Below, piece by piece: positions 1,462 through 46,074 of a stretch of 64,000 nucleotides of DNA. The stretch is from Gluconacetobacter diazotrophicus PA1 5 (GTDB lineage: Bacteria > Pseudomonadota > Alphaproteobacteria > Acetobacterales > Acetobacteraceae). The notes beneath the pieces are model-generated. The model did no database searches, had not been told where the DNA came from, and saw nothing but the letters and a program-made list of their open reading frames with translations. The position numbers were made by a program, and so were the translations under genes. The first letter of the stretch is position 1. Every line of letters begins with the position of its first letter. The DNA is taken from positions 682,001-746,000 of the forward strand of contig NC_011365.1 in assembly GCF_000021325.1 (NCBI RefSeq). Reading direction: 5' to 3'.

Positions 1462-2871
1462 ATGATGAAAACCGACCTGACCGAACTGCGCATCCGCCAT
1501 ATGCGCCACCTGCGCCGATCCGCCCGGGTCACGACGGCGCAGTGGCGGCGCAAGATCGTGTACTGGGCCGCGGCCATCGTCGTGGGGCTGGTCGCCGTGG
1601 GCTTCGCCACCGCCGCCGACGCCGCCGCCGCCCTGCGTACGCGCCTGGTCCACTGGGACCCGTGGATCATGCTGGCGATCACCCCGGCGGGGCTGGCGCT
1701 GTCCACCTGGCTGACCCGCACCTGGTTTCGCGGCGCCCAGGGATCGGGCATTCCCCAGACGATCGCGACCCTGCACCTGGACGATTTCGCGGTGGTCGAC
1801 CGGCTGCTGTCGCTGCGCATCGCCTTCGGCAAGATCCTGCTGACCACGCTGGGCCTGCTGGCCGGGGCATCGATCGGCCGCGAGGGCCCGACCGTGCAGG
1901 TGGGCGCCGCGATCATGCATGCGTTCGGCCGCTGGCTGAACCTGTCGGCGGTGGGGATGCGCCGGGGGCTGATCCTGGCGGGCGGCGCGTCGGGCGTGTC
2001 GGCGGCCTTCAACACGCCGCTGGGCGGAATCGTGTTCGCGATCGAGGAACTGAGCCATTCCTTCGAGCAGCGCACCAGCGGCACGATGCTGACCGGCGTT
2101 ATCCTGTCGGGCGTCACCGCCATCGCGCTGGTCGGCAATTATACCTATTTCGGCCATACCGACGTCGTGGTGCCGATCGGCATAAGCTGGATCGCGGTGC
2201 TGGCCTGCGGTATCCTGGGCGGGGTCAGCGGCGGGGCGTTCTCGGCCATCCTGATCCGCTCCTCGGCCGGCCTGCCGGGCGTGCTGGGGCAGTTCGTCAG
2301 CCGCCGGCCGGTGGCCTTCGCGGCCGCGTGCGGCCTGGTACTGGCCGTCCTGGGCGTGGCATCGGGGGGCATCACCTACGGCACGGGCTATTTACAGGCG
2401 CGCGAGATCATCACGGGCCAGACCCATTATCCGGCGTCGTTCTTCATCCTGAAATACATCGCCACCATCGTGTCCTACTGCTCGGGCATTCCGGGGGGAC
2501 TGTTCGCGCCGTCGCTGGCCATCGGGGCGGGCATCGGCGGGTGGATCGCGCAGTTCCTGCCCCATACGACGCCCGGCGCGGTCGTCCTGCTGGGCACCGT
2601 CGCCTATTTCTCGGCGGTGGTGCAGGCTCCGCTGACGGCCACCGTCATCGTGATGGAAATGTCGGACAACCAGCAGGTGACGCTGGCGCTGCTGGCGACG
2701 TCGTTCCTGGCCTATGCCGTGTCGCGCACGGTCTGCAGCCAGTCGCTCTACAGCGCGCTGGCCGAAAAATTCCTCGATGTGGTGGAACATGCCCCCCCGC
2801 CGGCCGAGGAAACCGCCGCCCCGCCCCGGGCCGCGATCGTCCCCGGCCCCGCCGCGCCGGAACGGGTCTGA
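1462..2871 (+). CDS. ClC family voltage-gated chloride channel / H+-Cl- antiporter
   Basis: 469 residues, the usual size for a bacterial ClC protein without CBS domains. The selectivity-filter regions are visible in order: GSGIPQT (about residue 95), GREGPTVQVGAA (about 138) and SGIPGGLFAPSLAIGAG (about 337). About ten or more hydrophobic segments lie between them. ClC proteins move chloride or other anions across the inner membrane; those with the gating glutamate of GREGP exchange anions for protons, for example in acid resistance. That glutamate is present. Two adjacent ATG codons are available and the first is used. A 119-bp gap separates the gene from the CDF pair, and it converges on the P450 gene with only 21 bases between the stops. 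Confidence 0.9.
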   Translation: MMKTDLTELRIRHMRHLRRSARVTTAQWRRKIVYWAAAIVVGLVAVGFATAADAAAALRTRLVHWDPWIMLAITPAGLALSTWLTRTWFRGAQGSGIPQTIATLHLDDFAVVDRLLSLRIAFGKILLTTLGLLAGASIGREGPTVQVGAAIMHAFGRWLNLSAVGMRRGLILAGGASGVSAAFNTPLGGIVFAIEELSHSFEQRTSGTMLTGVILSGVTAIALVGNYTYFGHTDVVVPIGISWIAVLACGILGGVSGGAFSAILIRSSAGLPGVLGQFVSRRPVAFAAACGLVLAVLGVASGGITYGTGYLQAREIITGQTHYPASFFILKYIATIVSYCSGIPGGLFAPSLAIGAGIGGWIAQFLPHTTPGAVVLLGTVAYFSAVVQAPLTATVIVMEMSDNQQVTLALLATSFLAYAVSRTVCSQSLYSALAEKFLDVVEHAPPPAEETAAPPRAAIVPGPAAPERV

Positions 2872-2892
2872 CGAGATCCTGCGCGCGAGCGC

Positions 2893-4299
2893 TCAGCCGT
2901 GGTGGACCGGACAGCGTTGGGCCGACGCGCCTGCCGGGACCGGTCGAGTCCCGGCGGCGGCCGTGCGCTTCCACACCGTCATCGGCAGGGTGTCGCCGGG
3001 GCGCAGGGTCAGGCGGCAGACCGGCTCGACCACCGCGCCGGGCGCCAGGCGCAACGTCGTGCCGCGTGCCAGCGAGGCCAGGCAGATGATCGCCTCGACC
3101 AGCCCGAAGGACAGGCCGGGACAGATCCGCGGGCCGATGCTGAACGGCACGTAGGTATATTTCTGCGGCGCATCCGGACTGCCGGGCAGGAACCGCTCGG
3201 GCATGAAATGGTCGGGCTTGCGCCAGTAGAGACGGTGCCGGTGCAGCAGCCACGGCACCACCATGACCAGCGCGCCGGCCTTCACCTTGCGGCTGCGGAT
3301 GGTGTCGTCCTCCTTCGCCTCCCGCGCCAGCAGGGGCACGGGCGGGTAGAGGCGCAGGGTCTCCTCGACGATGGCACGCGTATAGACCAGTTGCGACACA
3401 TCCGCGAAGGTCGGTGCCCGCGAACCGAGGACGGTATCGAGTTCCTCGTGCAGGCGGGCCTCGACCTCCGGCGCCTGCGACAGCAGGTACCACACCCAGG
3501 ACAGGCAGTTGGCCGTGGTTTCATGCCCGGCCAGGAAGATGACGGCGGCCTCGTTCCGCAGCGCGGTGGCGTCCAGCACCCCATCGCGCATCAGCATCCG
3601 GATGACCGAGCCATCATCCTCGGTGCGCTGAAGATCAGCGATGATCCCGTCGAGGACAGCGTGAATCCGGGCCGTCGCGCGGCGGGTCTTGGCCCCGTTC
3701 CGGCGCGGAACCCAGGATGGCAGGCCGAACGACGCGAGATCGCTCTGATCGACATATTTCTGGTATTCGGTAAAGGCTTCCGCCACCTCGCGCGCATGCT
3801 CCGCCCCCAGCGTCCGGCCGAATACCGCGCGGCAGATGATTTCCGCCGTCAGTTGCGCCATGACCTTCAGCACGTCGAAGGTCGCCCCGTCGGGAAGGGC
3901 GGCCCATCTGTCGGCCAGTTCGCCGACGGTCTCGACCATCGCGGGGGCGAACTGGTCCATGCGCGAGGTGTGCAGCACCGGCGAGACCATCTGTCGCCGC
4001 TGCTTCCAGGTCTCGCCGTCGCTGACGAACAGCCCGTCACCCAGCAGCGGCGACAGGGCGTTGCGTATCTGCGGGCTCTTGCGCTGAAAATTCTCGGCAC
4101 GGGTGATGAAGGCGTGACGGACGGTGTCCGGACTGTTGCAGATGAAGACCTGCCGGGCCAGAACCTGCATCGACATCGTCTGGTATTCGAATGCCTTTTC
4201 TTCCCATATATTCAGGAAGTTTTGCGTTCCTCTCCGCAACAGCTCGAATACCGACAGCGATGTCTTCGGACGGGGCGGAAAGGGAGGGATGAATTCCAT
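2893..4299 (-). CDS. Cytochrome P450
   Basis: A 468-residue P450 of the fatty-acid-hydroxylase-like class. The I-helix motif AGHETTAN, the K-helix ETLRLYPPVPLLAREA (ExxR) and the heme loop FSIGPRICPG are all present, with the heme-ligand cysteine near residue 393. No signal peptide or fused reductase is seen, so it needs separate electron-transfer partners, and none is adjacent. The frame stays open into the next gene, but the start was placed at the ATG at 4299, which has GGTGG just upstream and begins MEFIPPFPPRP, a typical proline-rich P450 N-terminus. The substrate is unknown; related enzymes oxidise fatty acids, terpenes or hopanoids. It converges with the ClC gene. Confidence 0.9.
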   Translation of the reverse strand: MEFIPPFPPRPKTSLSVFELLRRGTQNFLNIWEEKAFEYQTMSMQVLARQVFICNSPDTVRHAFITRAENFQRKSPQIRNALSPLLGDGLFVSDGETWKQRRQMVSPVLHTSRMDQFAPAMVETVGELADRWAALPDGATFDVLKVMAQLTAEIICRAVFGRTLGAEHAREVAEAFTEYQKYVDQSDLASFGLPSWVPRRNGAKTRRATARIHAVLDGIIADLQRTEDDGSVIRMLMRDGVLDATALRNEAAVIFLAGHETTANCLSWVWYLLSQAPEVEARLHEELDTVLGSRAPTFADVSQLVYTRAIVEETLRLYPPVPLLAREAKEDDTIRSRKVKAGALVMVVPWLLHRHRLYWRKPDHFMPERFLPGSPDAPQKYTYVPFSIGPRICPGLSFGLVEAIICLASLARGTTLRLAPGAVVEPVCRLTLRPGDTLPMTVWKRTAAAGTRPVPAGASAQRCPVHHG

Positions 4300-36575: not shown

Positions 36576-37304
36576 ATGACCGCCCCGCCGCGCCGCGCCG
36601 TCCTTGGGGCCCTGTTGCTGGCCGGGTCGCTGTCCCTGGGCGGATGCGGCTTCCAGCCCCTCTATGGCGGCAAGGGTGCCGGCGGCAGCGCCGCGGACAA
36701 CATTCCCGACGAGCTTCGGCAGGTCTATGTCGCGAGCATTCCGGAACGGTACGGCCAGGAATTGCGGCTGTTCCTGCAGCAGGACCTGGCCGGTGCCGGC
36801 CCCGAGGACCCGACCGGCTATACGCTGCGCGTCAATTCCTATGTGATGAACGAAGCGATCGACATCCATTCGGACAACACCAGCGGGCGTACCCGCGCCA
36901 CGGGCCACGCGCACTGGATGCTGTATACCGTCGCCCCCAACCCCGTCCTTCTGACCCAGGGCGACGCCCAGACCGTGGACGGCGAGAACGAGTCTTTCGA
37001 GCAGTATTTCGCCCAGAACCTGAACCAGGCCACGCTCGGCCGGCGCGTGGCCGACACGATCGCCGAGCGCATCACCCAGCAGCTCGCGGTATGGTTCCGC
37101 AGCCATACCACGCCCGCCCAGCGGGTCGTCGCCCCGCAGCCGACCTATATCGACCCGAACGTCATGCCCAATGCCAGCAACGAGATGCCACGCCAGTCGG
37201 TCGGCGAGGACGGCATGCCGGGCATGGCCATCGGACGTTCGCTGCCCAACCCGTCCGGCGCGTCGGAGACCGAGCCCGCCAACGGGACCCTGATCAACCA
37301 GTGA
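36576..37304 (+). CDS. lptE: LPS-assembly lipoprotein LptE
   Basis: 242 residues. A lipoprotein signal ends in SLGGCGFQPLYG, the hallmark LptE start with the acylated cysteine near residue 24. An alpha/beta domain follows (about 45-175, VYVASIPERYGQELRLFL ... VADTIAERITQQLAVWF). LptE plugs LptD at the outer membrane and helps deliver lipopolysaccharide to the surface. The C-terminal 65 residues (from about 175) are a polar extension rich in Pro, Asn and Met, longer than in E. coli. The gene begins 4 bases after leuS and its stop overlaps the GTG of holA, the usual leuS-lptE-holA order. Confidence 0.93.
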   Translation: MTAPPRRAVLGALLLAGSLSLGGCGFQPLYGGKGAGGSAADNIPDELRQVYVASIPERYGQELRLFLQQDLAGAGPEDPTGYTLRVNSYVMNEAIDIHSDNTSGRTRATGHAHWMLYTVAPNPVLLTQGDAQTVDGENESFEQYFAQNLNQATLGRRVADTIAERITQQLAVWFRSHTTPAQRVVAPQPTYIDPNVMPNASNEMPRQSVGEDGMPGMAIGRSLPNPSGASETEPANGTLINQ

Positions 37305-38314
37305 AGATCGACGCGCGCTCGGTCGCCCGCATCCTGCGTGAACCCGGGGCGCTGCGCGTCATCCTGCTGCACGGCGACGATTCCGGCCTGATCCGCGAAC
37401 GCGCCCGTCTGGCCGCGACCGCCATCGCCCCGAACCTGGACGACCCGTTCCGCGTCGCCGTGCTGGACCGCGACGCGGCGGACCGGCTGGACGAGGAGAT
37501 CTTCGCGCTATCCCTTGCCGGCGGCCGCCGCGTCGTCTGGGTCCGCGACGGCGGGGACAGCCTGACGGCCCCGCTGAAGGCCAGCCTGGCCCGGCCATCG
37601 GATACGCTGGTGATCGTCGAGGCCCCGGGCCTGGCCTCGCGCGCGCGCCTGCGCGCGCTGGCCGAGGCGCAGGCCGATTGCGCCGCCATCGCCTGCTACC
37701 CCGAGGAAGGCCGCGCGCTGGAAGCCTCGATCCGCCAGATGCTGGCGGAAGAGGACATTCGCATCGATCCCGACGCCCTGTCCTGGTTCGCCGGCCTGCT
37801 GGGACCGAACCGGGCCGCGACACGAGGCGAGGTCGAGAAGCTCGCCCTCTATGCCGGGCGGGGCGGCCAGCTCTCGCTGGACGACGTGCGGATGTGCATC
37901 GGGGACGCGGCGGGCGTGTCGCTGGAAGACGCGGCCTTCGCCGCGACAGCGGGCGACCGGGCCGGCGCGGATATCGCGATCGAGCGCGCGCTGGCCGAGG
38001 GCACCAGCCCGATCGCGGTCGCCCGGTCGCTGCTGTCGCACCTGCACCGGCTGCGGCGCGCGCGAATCGCCATGGATGGCGGCCAGAGCCGCGCCGACGC
38101 CATGCGCGGCCTGCGCCCGCCCGTCTTCTTCAAGCGGACCGATGCCTTCGGCCAGGCCCTTTCCCTGTGGACGGCCGCCCGCCTGATGGAGGCCGCCGAA
38201 CAGACCCAGCGCCTGGAACTGGAGTGCAAGCAGACCGGCGCCCCGGACCTCGCGCTCTGCCGCCGCCATATCGCGCGCCTGGCCGCGACCGCGATGGCGG
38301 GGCGCCGCCGGTGA
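37301..38314 (+). CDS. holA: DNA polymerase III subunit delta
   Basis: 337 residues of the clamp-loader delta subunit, which opens the beta sliding clamp during replication. The N-terminal AAA+-like region starts VKIDARSVARIL, with VILLHGDDSGLIRERAR and VWVRDGGDSLTAPL; as usual for delta it has no functional ATPase site. FAGLLGPNRAATRGEVEKLALYAG and the C-terminal helical collar (about 210-330) match the family. A GTG at 37301 overlaps the lptE stop (GTGA), so the two are translationally coupled; the frame is open further upstream only as a shadow of lptE. It ends 48 bases before the tRNA-Arg gene. Confidence 0.94.
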   Translation: MKIDARSVARILREPGALRVILLHGDDSGLIRERARLAATAIAPNLDDPFRVAVLDRDAADRLDEEIFALSLAGGRRVVWVRDGGDSLTAPLKASLARPSDTLVIVEAPGLASRARLRALAEAQADCAAIACYPEEGRALEASIRQMLAEEDIRIDPDALSWFAGLLGPNRAATRGEVEKLALYAGRGGQLSLDDVRMCIGDAAGVSLEDAAFAATAGDRAGADIAIERALAEGTSPIAVARSLLSHLHRLRRARIAMDGGQSRADAMRGLRPPVFFKRTDAFGQALSLWTAARLMEAAEQTQRLELECKQTGAPDLALCRRHIARLAATAMAGRRR

Positions 38315-38362: not shown

Positions 38363-38666
38363 GTCCGCGTAGCTCAGCAGGATAGAGCACAGGATTCCTG
38401 GTTTTCAAATTGGGCGTCATGATGGGAAACCGCATGACGGATCCGCTCAAATTCGGGGAACGCTCTGACCGCGCGGTCGTGCCGATCCCGAGCCAAGCCC
38501 GGCGCCTGCCGGGACGGTGTAGAGACTGGACGGGCGGCACCTGTCGGCCTTCGGGCCCAGGGTGAAGGGACAGTCCAGACCACGAACGCCATCGACGATG
38601 GCGGCGGCGAAAGCCGAAGTGGGATGAATCCTGGGGCCGTGGGTTCGAATCCCGCCGCGGACACCA
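38363..38666 (+). tRNA. tRNA-Arg(CCU), interrupted by a group I intron
   Basis: The exons are 38363-38399 and 38627-38666. Joined, they form a full cloverleaf: acceptor GTCCGCG/CGCGGAC, D-stem GCTC/GAGC, anticodon stem CAGGA/TCCTG with loop TTCCTAA (anticodon CCT at 38397-38399), T-stem GTGGG/CCCGC with loop TTCGAAT, discriminator A and an encoded CCA (38664-38666). The anticodon loop is broken after anticodon position 36 by a 227-nt insertion. Without splicing no functional tRNA-Arg(CCU), reader of AGG codons, could form from this copy. It lies downstream of holA. Confidence 0.96.
38400..38626 (+). ncRNA. Group I self-splicing intron (IC3-like) in tRNA-Arg(CCU)
   Basis: A 227-nt intron between anticodon position 36 and base 37. 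The 5' exon ends in U and the intron ends in G (38626), as required for group I splicing. A GGG at 38412-38414 can pair with the exon CCU, giving a G-U wobble at the splice site (P1 guide). AGAGACTGGACGGG at 38521-38534 and CAGTCCAGAC at 38571-38580 match the conserved P7-containing core; GACTG (38524-38528) pairs with CAGTC (38571-38575). There is no open reading frame. Small IC3 introns at this position of tRNA-Arg(CCU) are known from alphaproteobacteria such as Agrobacterium, and the Azoarcus tRNA-Ile intron has the same core. Confidence 0.93.
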
Positions 38667-39015
38667 CACCCTCCGTGCGGTGCTGGACAATTTCCATCAC
38701 AGCGCCGTGACTTTTCCCGGAATTACCCTGCCACCCAACGATCCAGCTCCGGATTCATCCGGCGCTGTCCGCTTGCCTTGCGCATCCGGCTCGACCAAAC
38801 AACGAATTGAAGAAGACCCGGCAGAATCCGTATGCATCGCAAAAGGGACCGGGATCGTTCACCTTGGACCCGATAAGCCATGGATGTCCTGGGCGTGATC
38901 GGGTGGAACCGGTGCCCCTCCGTTTCGCCGCTTTTCGGTTCCGCCAGCCCTTTTCCCCCCGTCTCGATCGCGTTACATCCTGATTCATTGGTCGCATTTG
39001 GAATTATATCCCTTC
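38667..39015 (+). other. Intergenic region upstream of the polyketide synthase
   Basis: About 350 bases between the tRNA and the PKS gene with no supported gene; short open frames on both strands lack family resemblance. Base composition drops toward the 3' end (about 38980-39012), which probably holds the PKS promoter and leader. No operator, riboswitch or terminator with a T-run was recognised. Confidence 0.5.
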
Positions 39016-42000
39016 ATGCAGAATCGTTCCATGCCTGGGCACATTACCGATACTCCGGAAGACCCCATCGCCATCATCGGTGCTTCCTGCCGTCTGCCCG
39101 GCGCGACGGACCTTGAAGGTCTCTGGCACCTTCTGGACGAGGAACGCGAAAGCGTCAGGCCGCTTCCGGGCGACCGGTTTCCCCTGCGGGATTTCTGGCA
39201 CCCGCGGCGGGGCGAGGCCGGGAAATTCTATGCGACGCACGCCGCGACCCTGGACAATGTCGAACTGTTCGACGCCGCGTTCTTCGGCATTTCGGCGCGC
39301 GAGGCCCGGCAGATCGACCCGCAGCAGCGCCTGCTGCTGGAACTGGCGTGGGAAGCGCTGGAGGATGCCGGGACGACGTCCGAGAGGATCGCGACGGCCG
39401 GTGTCTATATCGGCGCCTCGGGGCTGGAATATGCCAACCAGCGCCTGACCGACCCGGCGAACGGCGACGCCTATTTCATGCCGGGCAACACGCTCAGCAT
39501 CTTCGCCAACCGTATCTCCCACGCCCTTGGCCTGCGCGGGCCGAGCATGACGGTCGACACCGCCTGCTCGTCCTCGCTGTTCGCCCTGCACAGCGCGTGC
39601 GAGGATCTGCGCGCCGGCCGTATCGACGCGGCCCTGGTGGGCGGCGTCAGCATGCTGCTGTCGCCCTATCCGTTCATCGGCTTCTGCGCGGCGGGCATGC
39701 TGTCCCCGAAGGGACGGTGCCATTCGTTCAGCGCCGATGCCGACGGCTATGTGCGCGGCGAAGGCGGGGCCATGGTCCTGCTGAAGCCCCTGTCGGCCGC
39801 CCAGCGCGACGGGGACGACATTCGCGCGGTCATTCTCCGCACCGCTGTCAATGCCGACGGGCGGACGCCGGGCCTGACCTTCCCCAGCGCCAAGGCCCAG
39901 GCCGCCCTGCTGCGGGACATTTACGACCAGGCCGGAATCTCGCCCGACCGGCTCGCCTTCGTCGAGGCCCACGGCACCGGCACCCCGGCCGGGGACCCCG
40001 TGGAAACGAAGGCGCTGGGCAGCGTGCTGGGCCAGGCGCGCGCCACGCCGCTGCCGATCGGGTCGGTGAAGACCAATGTCGGGCATCTGGAGCCCGCGTC
40101 GGGGCTGGTCAGCCTGCTGAAGGCGATGCTGGCGCTGCAGAAGCGGCGCCTGCCGGCCTCGCTGCATTGCGAAAATCCCAGTCCGGCCATCCCGTTCGCG
40201 GACCTCAACCTGGATGTGGTGACGAAGGCCCGGCCGCTCGGCGAGGGCGAACTGATCGCCGGCGTCAACAATTTCGGCTTCGGGGGCGCCAACGCCCACG
40301 CGATCCTGGCCACCGCCCCGGCCGGGGCCGCCGATCAGGCTGCCCGCCCGTCCGCGCCCGAGGCCGCGCCGGGCCGCGCCGTGCCGTTGCTGCTGTCCGC
40401 CCGGTCCGAGGCCGGATTGCGCGACCTGGCACGGATCTGGTCCGCCAGATCGTGGAGCGACGCCGACCTGCGCGGCGTCGCGACCCGCCGCGCCCACCTG
40501 CCCTATCGCCTGGGCGTTCCCGGCGGGAATGCGGCGGACATGCGCGCGTCCCTGGCGACCTGGGTGGACTCGCGGGTCCATCCCGATGTGGTGACCGGAC
40601 AGGCCCTGGCCCAGGGGCGCACGGTGTTCGTCTTTTCCGGCAACGGCACCCAGTTTTCGGGAATGGGGCAGGAACTGCTGGAGATCAGCGCCCCGTTCGC
40701 CGCCGGCATCGCCGAGGCCGACGCGGCGCTGCGCCCGCATCTCGGCTGGTCGGTGCTGGAGACGATGCGGTCGGGCGACTGGTCGGCCGAACCGGCGGAC
40801 ATCGCGCAGCCGATGCTGTTCGCCTTCCAGATCGGCGTCCTGCGCGGCCTGGAACGGCAGGGCGTGCGGGCGGATATCGCGATCGGCCATAGCGTGGGCG
40901 AAATCGCGGCGGCCTTCTACGCCGGGATGCTGGACATGGAAGAGGCCGCGCGCATCGTCGTCCTGCGCAGCCGTCACCAGGCGGCAGCGCCCGGCGGCGG
41001 CATGGCCGCGCTGCATGGCGATTTGGAGGAGGCGACGCGCCTGCTGAAGCAGGCCGCGCCGGAACTGGAAATCGCGGCTTTCAACGCGCCGAACGCCCTG
41101 GCCGTCGCGGGCGATCTGGACGCGCTGGACCGGCTGGAGGCGGCGAACGCCGGCACGGCGCTGCAGATCCACCGGCTGAAGGTCGGGTACGCCTATCACA
41201 GCAGCCGGATGGACCCGATCTCGACCCCGCTGGTCCAGGACCTGGGCGCCATCACCGCACGCCTGCCGGAGCGGGTGCTGATCTCGACCGTGACGGGCCA
41301 GCCGGTGACCGCGACGTTCGACGCCGAGTATTGGTGGCGCAACGTCCGCGCGCCGGTCCTCTTCGCCGAATCCGTGCGCCAGGCGGCCGCCCAGGGCGGC
41401 GCCATCTTCATCGAGATCAGCCCGCGCCCGGTCCTGCAGCATTACCTGCGCGAGATCCTGCGGGACAGCGACGTGCAGTTCCGGGCCATACCGGCGGTGC
41501 CGGCCCGGGTCACCACCGACCCGTTCCCCCGCGCGGCCCTGGCCTGCTTTGCCGCGGGCGGCGATATCCTGTCGGCGTCGTGCTTCACTGGCCCGGCCCA
41601 GGTCCGTGGCCTGCCCGGCGTCCAGTGGCAGCGCGAGCGCCACTGGTACACCCCGACCGAAGACGCGTCCGTGGTCCTGTGCGACCAGCAGAACACCCAT
41701 CCCCTGCTGGGCGCGCGCGGCAAGGCGGATCCGAACGAGTGGATCGCGCATCTGGACGGCGCGGTGCAGCCCTGGCTGGCCGACCACAAGGTCGGCGATA
41801 CCATCGTCCTGGCCGCGGCCTGCATGATCGAATTCGCCTTCACCGCCGCGCGGGCGGCATGGCCGGCGGCGCAGGTGCTGGAACTGCGCGACTTCCAGAT
41901 CATGCGCCCGATCATCATCGAACCGGCACAGTTGCGTGAAATCCGGGTCCGGCTGGCAGCGGACGGCACGATCACCCTCGACAGCCGGCCGAGGCTGGCC

Positions 42001-45000
42001 CACGCGGTCTGGACGCGCCATGCGACCACACGGGCCGGCGTGGCACCTGTCCCCCCTGCGGCGCTGCCGCCCGCCGCCACCGATTCCATGCTGGCGGGGG
42101 ATGCGCTGTATGCCACGGCGCGTGCCGCCGGGCTGGCCTACGGGCCGGCCTTCCAGCGCGTCGCCGCCACGTCCATGGCCGAAGGCCGGGTCGAGGTGAC
42201 ATTGACCGGGCACGCCCCGATGGCGGGCCTGACGCTGGACCCGACGGCGCTGGACGGCACCTTCCAGGGGCTGGTCGGACTGGCCGTCAACCATGCCGGG
42301 GCCGGAACCGAATCCACGGATGCGCCGCTGCCCCGCAAGTTCGGCGTGATCCGCCTGGACCTGACGGCGGCGGAACCGGTCCGTGGACAGGCCACCGTCA
42401 CGACGTCCGGCCCGCGCGAGACCGAGGCCGATATCGTCATGCTGGACGGCGACGGGCGCGCGGTGCTGTCGGCCACCGCCTGCTGGTTCACCCGCATGCC
42501 GGGCGAACGCCCCACCCCGGTGGCCGAGCGCAGCTTCCATGAAATCTGGCTGCCGTCGCCCCTCACCCCCGCCCCGTTGTCCGACGACCGCTTCCTGGCC
42601 CTGCGTCCGGTCATGGAAACACCGGCCGGCGACGCGGACGACAAGGATGCCGGCCTTCTGGCCCAGGCCTTCCTGACCGCCTGCGACGCGCCCGCGGGCG
42701 ATGCACCCCAGGGCGAGACACCAGACGTCACGCGCGTCTGGCAGACCCTGTTCCTGGACCTGCCGCAATGGCTGCCGGCGGCGCTGCTGCTGGCCTGGGT
42801 GGGCGAACGGCGCGGCAAAGCCCCTCTCCACGAAGCGATGCCGGGCGACGACGCCTTTCCCGACATCGCGTTCCGGCAGTTGCTGTCCGGCCGTGCCGCC
42901 GAACTGGCGGCGGCGCAGATCGCCGACGCCATTGCCGCCTATACGCGCGACTGGCCGCAGGACCGCCCGATACGCGTGCTGGAACTGCATGCCGACCGGG
43001 GTACCCTGACCCGCCAACTGGCCCCGCGCCTGGCCGGACTGCCGGGGAGCCTGGATTACACGATCCTGGAACCCAACCGCGAACGGCAGGCCCGGCTGCG
43101 CCCGACGGTGCTGGCCCACCTGCCCGGCATCGTCCTGGCCGAGACCGTTCCGGCCGGCGCCTATGACGTCCTGGTCGCCTACACGCCCGGCCTGCACGGC
43201 ATCGTGCCGGCCGCCATCTTGGCGCAGGCCGACCGGCTGGCCCCGGGCGGCCTGATCCTGGTGGCCGAGGCGGCCGAGGACGGGGGCTGGGGCGTCCTGC
43301 GCGACCTGTCCGCCGATCCGCTGACCACCATCGCCGCGTGGCGCGACCTGCCGCATCGCCTGCGCGCGGTGGCCGAGAGCACGCCCAGCCAGACGCCGTT
43401 CCCGCTCGCGCTGCTGGCGGCTGTCGCGGCCGAGGCCGAAGACCCGCTGGCCGCCGCCCCCGAACCGGCCCCCGTCCTGCCGCCGGTCCGCCTGTCCTAC
43501 GCGCCCGAGGGTCACGAGGACGACGAAACCGCCCTCACCGCCCGGGCGATGCTGGCCCTGGCCGAGGACGCACGGCAGGCCGCCGAGGCCGGCGAACGTC
43601 TGGCCGTCGTCACCCGCGATGCCGCCCGCACGCCGCACGAGGCCGCGCGTACGGCCCTGGCCCGGACGATCGCCAACGAATTTCCGTCCTTGCGCTGCCG
43701 GCGGATCGACCTGTCCGCCGCCATGACGGAGGCCGGAACCGAAGAGGCCGTGCGCGCCGAATGCGCGTCGACGGATGATGAGCGCGAGGTGCGCTGGACC
43801 CCCGACGGACGCGTGGTCCGCCGCCTGCGCGAGAGCCTGCCGGATCGTGCCGCCGCCCCGGCGTCCGAACCCGTGCGGCTGATCCAGCCGGTCCCGGGGC
43901 CGCTGGACCGCCTGTGCTGGACCCCGGAAGCCCGCACTGCGCCCGGGCCGCGTGACGTCGTCATCGATGTCCGCGCCAGCGGCCTGAACTATCGCGACGT
44001 GCTGTCCGCCATCGGCATGCTGCCCGATGAGTTGCTGCTGGACGGCTTCGCCGGCGCGACGCTGGGCATGGAATGCACCGGCGTGGTCGAGGCCGTGGGG
44101 GATCAGGTCACCGACCTCTCGCCCGGCGACCGCGTCATGGCGCTGTCCGCCGCCGCCCATTCCAGCCGTGTGGTCACGGACCGGCGCAGTGTCCTGCCCC
44201 TGCCGGACTGGCTGTCCTTCGCGGCCGGCGCCACCGTTCCCGTTGCCTACCTGACGGTGCTGTACGCGCTTGAAACCGTGGGCGCGCTGCGCGCCGGGGA
44301 AACGGTGCTGATCCATGGCGCGGCCGGCGGCGTCGGCCTGGCCGCCATTCAGTATGCCAGCCATGTCGGGGCGCGGATCATCGCCACCGCGGGCTCGCCG
44401 GCCAAGCGGGCGGCGCTGCGACGGCTGGGGATCGAAACCGTCCTGGACAGCCGCTCGCTGCGCTTCGGCGCGGATGTCCTGGCCGCCACGAACGGCCAGG
44501 GCGTCGATGCGGTCCTCAACGCGCTGAGCGGCGAGGCGATGGAGCGCAGTCTCGAACTGCTGCGGCCGTTCGGACGCTTCCTGGAACTGGGCAAGCGGGA
44601 CTTCCTGGCCAATACCCGGGTCGGTATCGGCCCGCTGCGGCAGAATGTCAGCTATCATGCGATCGACGTCGATGCGCTGGTGCGCCACCGCCCGGAACTG
44701 GTCGGCACCCTGACGCAGCGCCTTCACGCCCTGCTGGAAGAGGGCGCGCTGGGCCCGCTGCCACATACCAGCTTCCCCGCCGCCGCCGCGACCGATGCGT
44801 TCGCGCTGATGCGCACGTCGGCCCATGTGGGCAAGATCGTCCTGACGATGGGCCCCGTGCACCTGCCGCCCGACCTGGATGTGCCCGCCGACCGGACGGT
44901 CCTGGTCACTGGGGGAACCGGCGGGTTCGGCGCGCGCGCCGCGCTGTGGCTGGTGAAGCGGGGGGCCCGGCACCTGGTGCTGGTCAGCCGGCGCGGCCCC

Positions 45001-46074
45001 GCCGCCGACGGCGTCGCCGACCTGCGTGCCACGCTGCTGGATGCGGGCGCGCTTCGCGTCGAAATCCGCGCCTGCGACGTGACGGACCCGGCCGCGCTCG
45101 CGTCGCTGGTCGGTGATATCCGCGCCACCATGCCGCCGCTCGGCGGAGTCGTGCATGCCGCCGTCACCGTGGCGGACGGGCTGGTCTCGACCCTGACGGA
45201 GGAGCAGGTCGCCACCTCGGTCCAGGCCAAGCTGGGCGGCGCGCTGGCGCTGGACCGGCTGACGCGGGACGATCCGCTTTCGCTGTTCCTGATCTTCTCC
45301 TCGGCCACGATCACCCTCGGCGCGCCGGGCCAGGGCGCCTATGTCGCCGCCAACGCGGCGGTGGAGGCAATGATCCGGCGACGCCGCGATTCGGGCCTGC
45401 CCGGCTGCGCCGTCCGCTGGGGACCGATCGCCGATTCCGGCTTCCTGGAACGCAACGCGGCGGCGCGCGAGGCGCTGGATCGCCGGCTGGGCGCGCAATC
45501 GATGCGCTCCATGGCGGCGCTGGACGCCCTGCCCGACCTGCTCGTCTCGTCCGATCCGTGCCCGGTGCTGGCGGACATGGACTGGCAGGCAACCGGAAAC
45601 ATGCTGCCGATCCTGGACGAACCGCTGTTCGGCGCCGTGGCGCGCCGTCGGGACGAAGATAGCGACACCGGCGACCTGATGACCCTGCTGGCCGGGGCGA
45701 CCGAGGAACAGCGGCGCGAAATCGTCGCCGACCTGATCCTGGGCGAACTGACCCGCATCATGCAGACCGATCGCGAGGCGCTGCCCCTGGACCAGCCGCT
45801 GGCCGAACTGGGCATGGATTCGCTGACGGCGGTGGAACTGGCACTGGGGCTGGAACGCCGACTGGGCGTGTCGCTTCCCGGTTTCGCCTGGCAGGAAATG
45901 ACCGTACGGCGCGTCGCCCGCCAGGTCTCCGCCCTGCTGGGTGCCGGCGGCCAGGACGCCGCCGTCACGCCGGACGAGGCCGTGCTGGACCGCCATCTGT
46001 CCGCCGAGGAACGGCAGGCCGCCTCGGCGTCGTCCGAACCCGTCTCCCAGAACAATGAAGAACTGACCACATGA
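39016..46074 (+). CDS. Type I highly reducing polyketide/fatty-acid synthase (RkpA-like)
   Basis: A 2352-residue single-module synthase. Domains in order, with approximate residues: KS 18-440 (DTACSSSL cysteine near 183, EAHGTGTPAGD, NVGHLEPASG); AT 535-850 (GHSVGE serine, YHSSRMD); DH 890-1160 (ADHKVGDTIVL with LDPTALDGTFQG); a methyltransferase-like segment 1290-1430 whose SAM motif is degenerate (VLELHADRGTLT); ER 1620-1950 (HGAAGGVGLAAIQYA); KR 1955-2180 (VTGGTGGFGARAALW, SSATITLG, QGAYVAANA); ACP 2235-2310 with the phosphopantetheine serine near 2269 (LGMDSLTAVEL). All reductive domains are present, so a saturated chain is expected. No thioesterase is present, so release needs another enzyme. 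The stop overlaps the oxoamine synthase start (ATGA), which suggests chain release by that enzyme. Start 39016 is tentative; TTG 38998 and ATG 39031 are in frame. Confidence 0.93.
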   Translation: MQNRSMPGHITDTPEDPIAIIGASCRLPGATDLEGLWHLLDEERESVRPLPGDRFPLRDFWHPRRGEAGKFYATHAATLDNVELFDAAFFGISAREARQIDPQQRLLLELAWEALEDAGTTSERIATAGVYIGASGLEYANQRLTDPANGDAYFMPGNTLSIFANRISHALGLRGPSMTVDTACSSSLFALHSACEDLRAGRIDAALVGGVSMLLSPYPFIGFCAAGMLSPKGRCHSFSADADGYVRGEGGAMVLLKPLSAAQRDGDDIRAVILRTAVNADGRTPGLTFPSAKAQAALLRDIYDQAGISPDRLAFVEAHGTGTPAGDPVETKALGSVLGQARATPLPIGSVKTNVGHLEPASGLVSLLKAMLALQKRRLPASLHCENPSPAIPFADLNLDVVTKARPLGEGELIAGVNNFGFGGANAHAILATAPAGAADQAARPSAPEAAPGRAVPLLLSARSEAGLRDLARIWSARSWSDADLRGVATRRAHLPYRLGVPGGNAADMRASLATWVDSRVHPDVVTGQALAQGRTVFVFSGNGTQFSGMGQELLEISAPFAAGIAEADAALRPHLGWSVLETMRSGDWSAEPADIAQPMLFAFQIGVLRGLERQGVRADIAIGHSVGEIAAAFYAGMLDMEEAARIVVLRSRHQAAAPGGGMAALHGDLEEATRLLKQAAPELEIAAFNAPNALAVAGDLDALDRLEAANAGTALQIHRLKVGYAYHSSRMDPISTPLVQDLGAITARLPERVLISTVTGQPVTATFDAEYWWRNVRAPVLFAESVRQAAAQGGAIFIEISPRPVLQHYLREILRDSDVQFRAIPAVPARVTTDPFPRAALACFAAGGDILSASCFTGPAQVRGLPGVQWQRERHWYTPTEDASVVLCDQQNTHPLLGARGKADPNEWIAHLDGAVQPWLADHKVGDTIVLAAACMIEFAFTAARAAWPAAQVLELRDFQIMRPIIIEPAQLREIRVRLAADGTITLDSRPRLAHAVWTRHATTRAGVAPVPPAALPPAATDSMLAGDALYATARAAGLAYGPAFQRVAATSMAEGRVEVTLTGHAPMAGLTLDPTALDGTFQGLVGLAVNHAGAGTESTDAPLPRKFGVIRLDLTAAEPVRGQATVTTSGPRETEADIVMLDGDGRAVLSATACWFTRMPGERPTPVAERSFHEIWLPSPLTPAPLSDDRFLALRPVMETPAGDADDKDAGLLAQAFLTACDAPAGDAPQGETPDVTRVWQTLFLDLPQWLPAALLLAWVGERRGKAPLHEAMPGDDAFPDIAFRQLLSGRAAELAAAQIADAIAAYTRDWPQDRPIRVLELHADRGTLTRQLAPRLAGLPGSLDYTILEPNRERQARLRPTVLAHLPGIVLAETVPAGAYDVLVAYTPGLHGIVPAAILAQADRLAPGGLILVAEAAEDGGWGVLRDLSADPLTTIAAWRDLPHRLRAVAESTPSQTPFPLALLAAVAAEAEDPLAAAPEPAPVLPPVRLSYAPEGHEDDETALTARAMLALAEDARQAAEAGERLAVVTRDAARTPHEAARTALARTIANEFPSLRCRRIDLSAAMTEAGTEEAVRAECASTDDEREVRWTPDGRVVRRLRESLPDRAAAPASEPVRLIQPVPGPLDRLCWTPEARTAPGPRDVVIDVRASGLNYRDVLSAIGMLPDELLLDGFAGATLGMECTGVVEAVGDQVTDLSPGDRVMALSAAAHSSRVVTDRRSVLPLPDWLSFAAGATVPVAYLTVLYALETVGALRAGETVLIHGAAGGVGLAAIQYASHVGARIIATAGSPAKRAALRRLGIETVLDSRSLRFGADVLAATNGQGVDAVLNALSGEAMERSLELLRPFGRFLELGKRDFLANTRVGIGPLRQNVSYHAIDVDALVRHRPELVGTLTQRLHALLEEGALGPLPHTSFPAAAATDAFALMRTSAHVGKIVLTMGPVHLPPDLDVPADRTVLVTGGTGGFGARAALWLVKRGARHLVLVSRRGPAADGVADLRATLLDAGALRVEIRACDVTDPAALASLVGDIRATMPPLGGVVHAAVTVADGLVSTLTEEQVATSVQAKLGGALALDRLTRDDPLSLFLIFSSATITLGAPGQGAYVAANAAVEAMIRRRRDSGLPGCAVRWGPIADSGFLERNAAAREALDRRLGAQSMRSMAALDALPDLLVSSDPCPVLADMDWQATGNMLPILDEPLFGAVARRRDEDSDTGDLMTLLAGATEEQRREIVADLILGELTRIMQTDREALPLDQPLAELGMDSLTAVELALGLERRLGVSLPGFAWQEMTVRRVARQVSALLGAGGQDAAVTPDEAVLDRHLSAEERQAASASSEPVSQNNEELTT

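What the first reader, a model, noticed from the sequence alone, without database searches (positions are those of the whole stretch)
38363..38666. Group I intron splitting the anticodon loop of tRNA-Arg(CCU)
A complete tRNA appears only when a 227-nt segment is removed. The segment has U before and G at its end, a GGG guide able to pair with the CCU exon end, and a P7 core like the Azoarcus/Agrobacterium IC3 introns. It carries no endonuclease gene, so it is probably inherited or mobile only in trans. The only AGG decoder seen in this window depends on self-splicing, so AGG reading is linked to ribozyme activity.
Basis: partly seen in the sequence, partly recalled or inferred. Interest (0 to 1): 0.75.

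Follow-up and report, generated by a model that had tools for sequence, protein, structure and literature searches.

The report
Self-splicing intron in an arginine tRNA
A gene for one arginine tRNA is interrupted in its anticodon loop by a small RNA intron of a known bacterial self-splicing kind; relatives of this intron sit in many other tRNA genes, and a few of those lie beside broken tRNA halves and DNA integrases, which hints at how such introns spread.

Summary
Removing window 38400-38626 (227 nt) leaves a regular tRNA-Arg(CCU). The insert is a group I intron: Rfam Intron_gpI E 2.9e-6, although 31.8 bits against a gathering score of 50. A P3-P9 core over 31 relatives is 98.8% paired, with two-sided changes in 16 of 36 pairs. 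It belongs to the known alphaproteobacterial tRNA-Arg(CCU) introns; a Bartonella member self-splices (passages). It interrupts the only tRNA-Arg(CCU) gene seen in 14 of 14 Gluconacetobacter genomes. AGG reading is not shown to depend on it, since tRNA-Arg(UCU) is intact.

Beyond the window, the same core lies in tRNAs for Arg, Leu, Lys, Thr and Ile/Met, and its guide follows the exon (170 of 187; shuffled mean 104). In 12 of 199 copies a broken piece of the same tRNA lies nearby (control 1 of 44), and at 4 of these 12 a tyrosine integrase was found. This suggests integrative elements that break a tRNA and carry an intron-bearing replacement. The window's own copy shows no such trace.

The parts
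38363..38399 (+). 5' exon of tRNA-Arg(CCU), ends with U36
38400..38626 (+). group I intron, 227 nt, last base G
38627..38666 (+). 3' exon of tRNA-Arg(CCU) with encoded CCA
38412..38414 (+). internal guide GGG, pairs with CCU 38397-38399 (P1)
   Evidence: sequence; guide test over relatives
38415..38439 (+). P2 hairpin with GAAA loop
   Evidence: sequence
38443..38448 (+). P3, 5' strand (3' strand 38532-38537)
   Evidence: two-sided changes in 5 of 6 pairs
38452..38457 (+). P4, 5' strand (3' strand 38487-38492)
38493..38517 (+). P6 and its extension (P6 pairs 38493-38494 with 38516-38517)
   Evidence: P6 does not vary in the alignment
38524..38528 (+). P7, 5' strand (3' strand 38571-38575), expected guanosine site
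   Evidence: 4 of 5 pairs never vary, 1 changes on both sides; G binding recalled
38539..38563 (+). P8
38580..38622 (+). P9.0, P9a and P9b (GAAA loop in P9b)
37301..38314 (+). reads like holA (DNA polymerase III delta subunit; named by eye), neighbour upstream, not part of the intron
   Evidence: found in 13 of 13 loci of the genus and in L045; weak partial match in L052

Best explanation
The insert is a genuine small group I intron in the only tRNA-Arg(CCU) gene found in a Gluconacetobacter genome. The precursor folds so that the guide GGG pairs with the anticodon CCU; a guanosine held in P7 cuts after U36; the freed exon attacks behind the last intron G; the exons join into a normal tRNA. 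Shown here: boundaries, guide, conserved and covarying core, sole copy, presence across the genus. Inferred from homology: the self-splicing chemistry and the guanosine step. Within Gluconacetobacter the intron is inherited in place, without an endonuclease gene of its own.
For: tRNA restored by removal; Rfam E 2.9e-6; core pairs in 98.8% of cells, 16 of 36 pairs with two-sided changes, 0 of 500 shuffles as high on any of five measures; triplet at the guide position pairs with the exon in 170 of 187 introns, shuffled mean 104, maximum 115 of 1000 shuffles; 14 of 14 Gluconacetobacter genomes hold the CCU gene only in split form, with G015 as full-length positive control; holA upstream in 13 of 13 loci; [quoted passage not shown]
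Against: Rfam score below its gathering score, and the same family rings at E <= 1 in 8 of 14 control genomes, so weak Rfam matches alone prove little. The structure was drawn by hand on the alignment that tests it. Folding of the single sequence gives z -2.70, with 1 of 100 shuffles as good, and cannot hold the P3-P7 pseudoknot. No RNA data.
Confidence: 0.92

Rival explanations
1. The intron no longer splices and the gene is dead; AGG is read by tRNA-Arg(UCU).
For: tRNA-Arg(UCU) is intact; AGG is rare, 3 of 325 arginine codons in four genes.
Against: Both exons, guide and core are kept in 13 of 13 genus genomes, and the spliced product is a regular tRNA.
Confidence: 0.05
2. The window's gene is the end state of an integrative element that broke the old tRNA-Arg(CCU), brought an intron-bearing replacement, and then decayed. 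This is compatible with self-splicing and concerns origin only.
For: Such an architecture in relatives: G010 Lys, G060 and G242 Thr, and a broken 5' half beside intron-bearing tRNA-Arg(CCU) in L128 (decayed) and L217 (inverted).
Against: No broken half in the window's genome or within 1.5 kb of the gene; the holA neighbourhood is stable in the genus. Sister genera without the intron were not compared at this locus.
Confidence: 0.2
3. The insert is removed by protein enzymes, as archaeal and eukaryotic tRNA introns are.
For: It lies in the anticodon loop, after position 36, close to the usual place of such introns (37/38; PMC4033280, passage).
Against: Length, and the covarying group I core; bacterial tRNA introns are described as group I (PMC4033280, passage).
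Confidence: 0.01

Closest known systems
Alphaproteobacterial tRNA-Arg(CCU) group I introns (Paquin, Heinfling and Shub 1999, seen only as a reference; Bartonella BbgpI, PMC7717549, passages read)
   Same: Same tRNA, anticodon loop, CCT on both sides, group I stems, no endonuclease reported in the passages; tRNA gene unannotated until the intron is removed.
   Different: New host genus. Letters of the published introns were not compared here.
Azoarcus tRNA-Ile(CAU) and cyanobacterial tRNA-Leu(UAA) introns (IC3; recalled, with passages in PMC4033280 and PMC3984707)
   Same: Small group I introns of tRNA anticodon loops.
   Different: Other tRNA and another guide. Azoarcus letters were not compared.
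tRNA-dependent lysogeny (PMC10865867, abstract and passages)
   Same: For relatives G010 and G060, not for the window: a tyrosine integrase, a short core in the anticodon loop, a broken host tRNA and a complete tRNA of the same type on the element.
   Different: The replacement here holds a group I intron inside the core; the paper's text has the word intron once, in a reference title. Alphaproteobacteria instead of actinobacteria.
Group I introns of tmRNA (PMC11915505, passages)
   Same: Few endonucleases; one loop invaded at several neighbouring positions; C before the intron in 15 sequences.
   Different: T-loop of tmRNA; that C is paired with A, while the Leu(CAA) cases here would pair C with G.

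Membership tests
Group I intron | U before the intron, paired with G of the guide; G as last base | tested here: met
Group I intron | P3-P9 core with the P3-P7 pseudoknot | tested here: met
   (structure drawn by hand)
Group I intron | Rfam RF00028 gathering score | tested here: not met
   31.8 of 50 bits, E 2.9e-6; this is a curators' cut-off, not a biological feature
Group I intron | Self-splicing with guanosine | not testable with these tools
   needs an experiment
Subgroup IC3 | No P5abc, GAAA loops in P2 and P9 | tested here: inconclusive
   Seen in the sequence; no subgroup model was run; the defining features are partly recalled
Alphaproteobacterial tRNA-Arg(CCU) introns | Insertion in the anticodon loop of tRNA-Arg(CCU), CCT on both sides | tested here: met
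   description
Alphaproteobacterial tRNA-Arg(CCU) introns | Homology to the published Agrobacterium or Bartonella introns | not tested
   Their letters were not fetched; homologues in other families of the class were found with model R1
tRNA-dependent integration (window's own gene) | Native tRNA broken beside the replacement copy | tested here: not met
tRNA-dependent integration (G010 Lys, G060 Thr) | Broken native tRNA with a short shared core, tyrosine integrase, complete tRNA of the same type on the element | tested here: met
   in G060 the second half lies on another contig
tRNA-dependent integration (G010 Lys, G060 Thr) | The replacement tRNA is needed for stable integration | not testable with these tools
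   needs an experiment

The most novel reading that the evidence does not exclude
Group I introns of bacterial tRNA anticodon loops that lack an endonuclease spread and persist on integrative elements. The element integrates into the anticodon loop of a tRNA gene, leaves it broken, and supplies an intron-bearing replacement. The intron splits the integration core in the replacement (ACTTT|TAAT in Lys, CTTGGT|AA in Thr), so the integrase no longer sees that copy, while splicing restores the RNA. When the element decays, an intron-bearing sole tRNA gene remains, as in the window.
Probability: 0.3. Interest if true: 0.8.

Novelty: new member of a known kind. Interest (0 to 1): 0.47.

Why it matters
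For the window: a tRNA gene that ARAGORN, run without introns, does not see, because the tRNA exists only after splicing. For the family: one intron core occupies about ten kinds of tRNA, its guide follows each exon, and a few copies look like replacement tRNAs beside integrases. That would give a testable answer to how introns without an endonuclease move, and why they sit in anticodon loops, where integrases also act.

Tried and rejected
Rfam at gathering threshold found nothing in the window. A first alignment mixed strands and was discarded. Free splicing with ARAGORN gave many meaningless tRNAs, so boundaries were fixed by the model's end and by stem and loop rules. A first guide test, any pairing triplet within about 45 bases, was uninformative because other exons also found partners; a test at a fixed distance replaced it. 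That distance, 28 bases before P3, was chosen after reading examples; at 27 and 29 bases 14 and 32 of 187 fit. G352:C55, listed as two matches, proved one intron with a long insertion. tRNA-Leu(UAA) was sought in 37 genomes besides G000: extra 5' halves near the copy in G444 and G685 were followed up, a possible one in G026 was not.

Results against the island reading: the scan found a broken piece in 12 of 199 copies, with flanks of very different length (some under 300 bases), and one weaker match (L202) was not counted. The control, with about 1.5 kb flanks for most loci, gave 1 of 44 tRNA calls, some counted twice because loci overlap, so the difference in rate is weak; the architecture in G010, G060 and G242 is the main evidence. 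No integrase turned up in the proteins scanned beside L209, L216, L233, L296, L128, L217 or in G242; not every open frame was scanned. L196 has a transposase-type integrase core instead. In L259 the native tRNA is broken in the T region, outside the intron site, so core hiding does not fit it; L128 and L233 halves are decayed and L217's is inverted. Of 39 viral copies checked, none had an extra 5' half and one had a weak 3' match.

Rows dropped: L041 (same core as L040) and L051 (N runs) were left out of alignment A2 (31 of 33 used). Of 213 loci typed (138, 75), L051, L227, L228 and L276 were dropped, leaving 209, of which 202 have distinct cores and 18 were labelled by hand; L225, L229 and L231, cut off at an end, were not typed. 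Some of the 209 are the same gene from two collections. The loci are best matches and chosen ones, not an even sample. Of 83 model matches in 80 viral loci, 61 were typed.

Full report
Observation. Window 38363-38666 reads 37 bases of a tRNA, 227 bases of insert and the last 40 bases of the tRNA with CCA. ARAGORN finds no tRNA in the window as it stands and a regular tRNA-Arg(CCU) once 38400-38626 is removed. Rfam's group I model matches 38395-38597 with E 2.9e-6 in a 651-base search, but its 31.8 bits stay below the curated 50. In the whole genome it is the only match of that family at E <= 1; the same search also rings, mostly below the cut-off, in 8 of 14 control genomes.

Organism. The genome has contigs of 3,887,492 and 27,455 bases. 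Two genomes with the same genus code, G010 and G006, share the contig lengths 258,142 and 56,075 with Gluconacetobacter dulcium LMG 1728 and G. sacchari LMG 19747, so the genus is Gluconacetobacter. The window genome's own lengths recall G. diazotrophicus PAl 5 (memory, no call).

Structure. 31 intron cores were aligned. A structure of 36 pairs (P3, P4, P5, P6, P7, P8, P9.0, P9a, P9b), drawn by hand, is formed in 98.8% of cells, with two-sided changes in 16 pairs and 77 cells; 0 of 500 shuffles reach any of the five measures, and sliding one strand lowers pairing to 27-46%. P3 has two-sided changes in 5 of 6 pairs. GAAA loops close P2 and P9b and there is no P5abc, as in subgroup IC3 (partly recalled).

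Sole copy and decoding. Rfam lists 52 tRNA places in the genome; ARAGORN types Arg ACG, CCG and UCU as uninterrupted and no second CCU. A natural intact tRNA-Arg(CCU) of G015 used as query finds only two separated exons in 14 of 14 Gluconacetobacter genomes and the full gene in G015. With tRNA-Arg(UCU) intact, AGG reading is not shown to depend on the ribozyme. AGG is 3 of 325 arginine codons in four genes near the insert.

Inheritance. In one search the 12 other genomes of the genus keep the stretch at 92-96% identity, and in 13 of 13 loci, the window's included, a holA-like gene lies upstream. In the family 140 of 299 genomes and 54 of 102 genera have a match of model R1 at E <= 1e-6; in the class 49 of 385 genomes, in the phylum 41 of 398, family members included. 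These large searches used stricter filters that lose weak matches. Intact tRNA-Arg(CCU) was typed in 9 loci of the family. The distribution is patchy, as the title of Paquin et al. 1999 already says (seen as a reference).

Other tRNAs. Of 209 loci kept, 89 are Arg(CCU), 55 Leu(UAA) and one decayed, 25 Lys(UUU), 9 Thr(GGU), 8 Lys(CUU), 8 Leu(CAA) and one doubtful, 5 Arg(UCU), 2 Thr(CGU), 2 Leu(UAG) and 4 Ile or Met(CAU). At 28 bases before P3 the triplet pairs with the last three exon bases in 170 of 187 introns; with exons shuffled among introns the mean is 104 and the maximum 115 of 1000. The triplet is GCC in 9 of 9 Thr(GGU), GAG in 49 of 55 Leu(UAA), GGG in 80 of 88 Arg(CCU). In a quick tree of 202 cores the tRNA type changes at least 28 times, against a shuffled mean of 100.5. 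So introns mostly stay with one tRNA type and have moved between types several times; only 23 of 199 inner branches are well supported.

Broken halves and integrases. In G010 the native tRNA-Lys(UUU) is cut in its anticodon loop. Its halves lie about 39 kb apart and share ACTTTTAAT, and a PF00589 integrase follows the first half. A complete tRNA-Lys(UUU) with the intron lies inside, about 125 bases from the second half. In G060 the native tRNA-Thr(GGU) is cut with shared CTTGGTAA; the intron-bearing copy follows after about 107 bases and a PF00589 integrase lies within 2 kb; the other half is on another contig. G242 has both Thr halves about 1.48 kb apart around an intron-bearing copy; the two proteins scanned there match no Pfam family. 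A scan of 199 copies found a broken piece of the same tRNA in 12: Lys(UUU) 2, Lys(CUU) 2, Thr(GGU) 2, Thr(CGU) 1, Leu(UAA) 2, Arg(CCU) 2, Arg(UCU) 1. PF00589 integrases were found at 4 of the 12: G010, G060, L203 and L259. The control gave 1 of 44 tRNA calls. The window's gene shows none.

Reading. The closest described system is tRNA-dependent lysogeny (PMC10865867, abstract and passages): a phage breaks tRNA-Lys with a 10-base core and brings its own tRNA-Lys. What is added here is an intron inside the core of the replacement. That the intron hides the core from the integrase is my inference; simple carriage of introns by phages is the plainer alternative. A 2014 review says that phage introns known then were all in protein genes (PMC3984707, passage). 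My searches of an open-access library found one claim of group I introns in other bacterial tRNAs, 22 to 49 bases long, in cyanobacterial tRNA-Arg, Gly and Lys (PMC5733544, passages), and, in tRNAscan-SE 2.0, introns in tRNA-fMet and tRNA-Ile2 (PMC8450103, passages). I saw no report of the Thr, Lys or Arg(UCU) cases in these listings and passages, but most subscription papers are not held.

Verdict. The finding is a correct reading of a known kind of element in a host genus new to me in print. Its claim about AGG is too strong. The more interesting result lies outside the window.

Noticed in passing
L123, L160 (G111) and L121, L165 (G290): Both tRNA-Arg(CCU) and tRNA-Arg(UCU) carry the intron and no intact copy was seen (weaker matches not all typed), so AGA and AGG reading there may depend on ribozymes.
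   Followed up: partly
L171, L175, L253, L262, L268: Introns in tRNA-Leu(CAA) that seem to follow C34 instead of U, with a C-G pair at the splice site (labelled by hand).
   Followed up: partly
L132, L133: Intron-bearing tRNA-Leu(UAG)-like genes with C instead of U at position 33 (read by eye, ARAGORN does not accept them).
   Followed up: no
L325 (tRNA 1594-1668, integrase 1742-3013) and L326 (2601-2649): The window's genome has an integrase beside an intact tRNA-Lys(UUU), and a displaced 3' piece of that tRNA 40 kb away: an ordinary island.
   Followed up: partly
L470, L471, L472: 1272 plasmid records, mostly Enterobacteriaceae, match the intron core at under 80% identity; in the 3 looked at it lies near aac(3)-IId.
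   Followed up: partly
L350-L429: Introns of this core are frequent in viral contigs, mostly in tRNA genes and perhaps some in protein genes.
   Followed up: partly
L021, 1820-1851: A 5' half-like copy lies beside tRNA-Arg(CCG) of the window's genome.
   Followed up: no
window 38998-46074: A long open frame downstream of the tRNA reads like a type I polyketide synthase (by eye).
   Followed up: no
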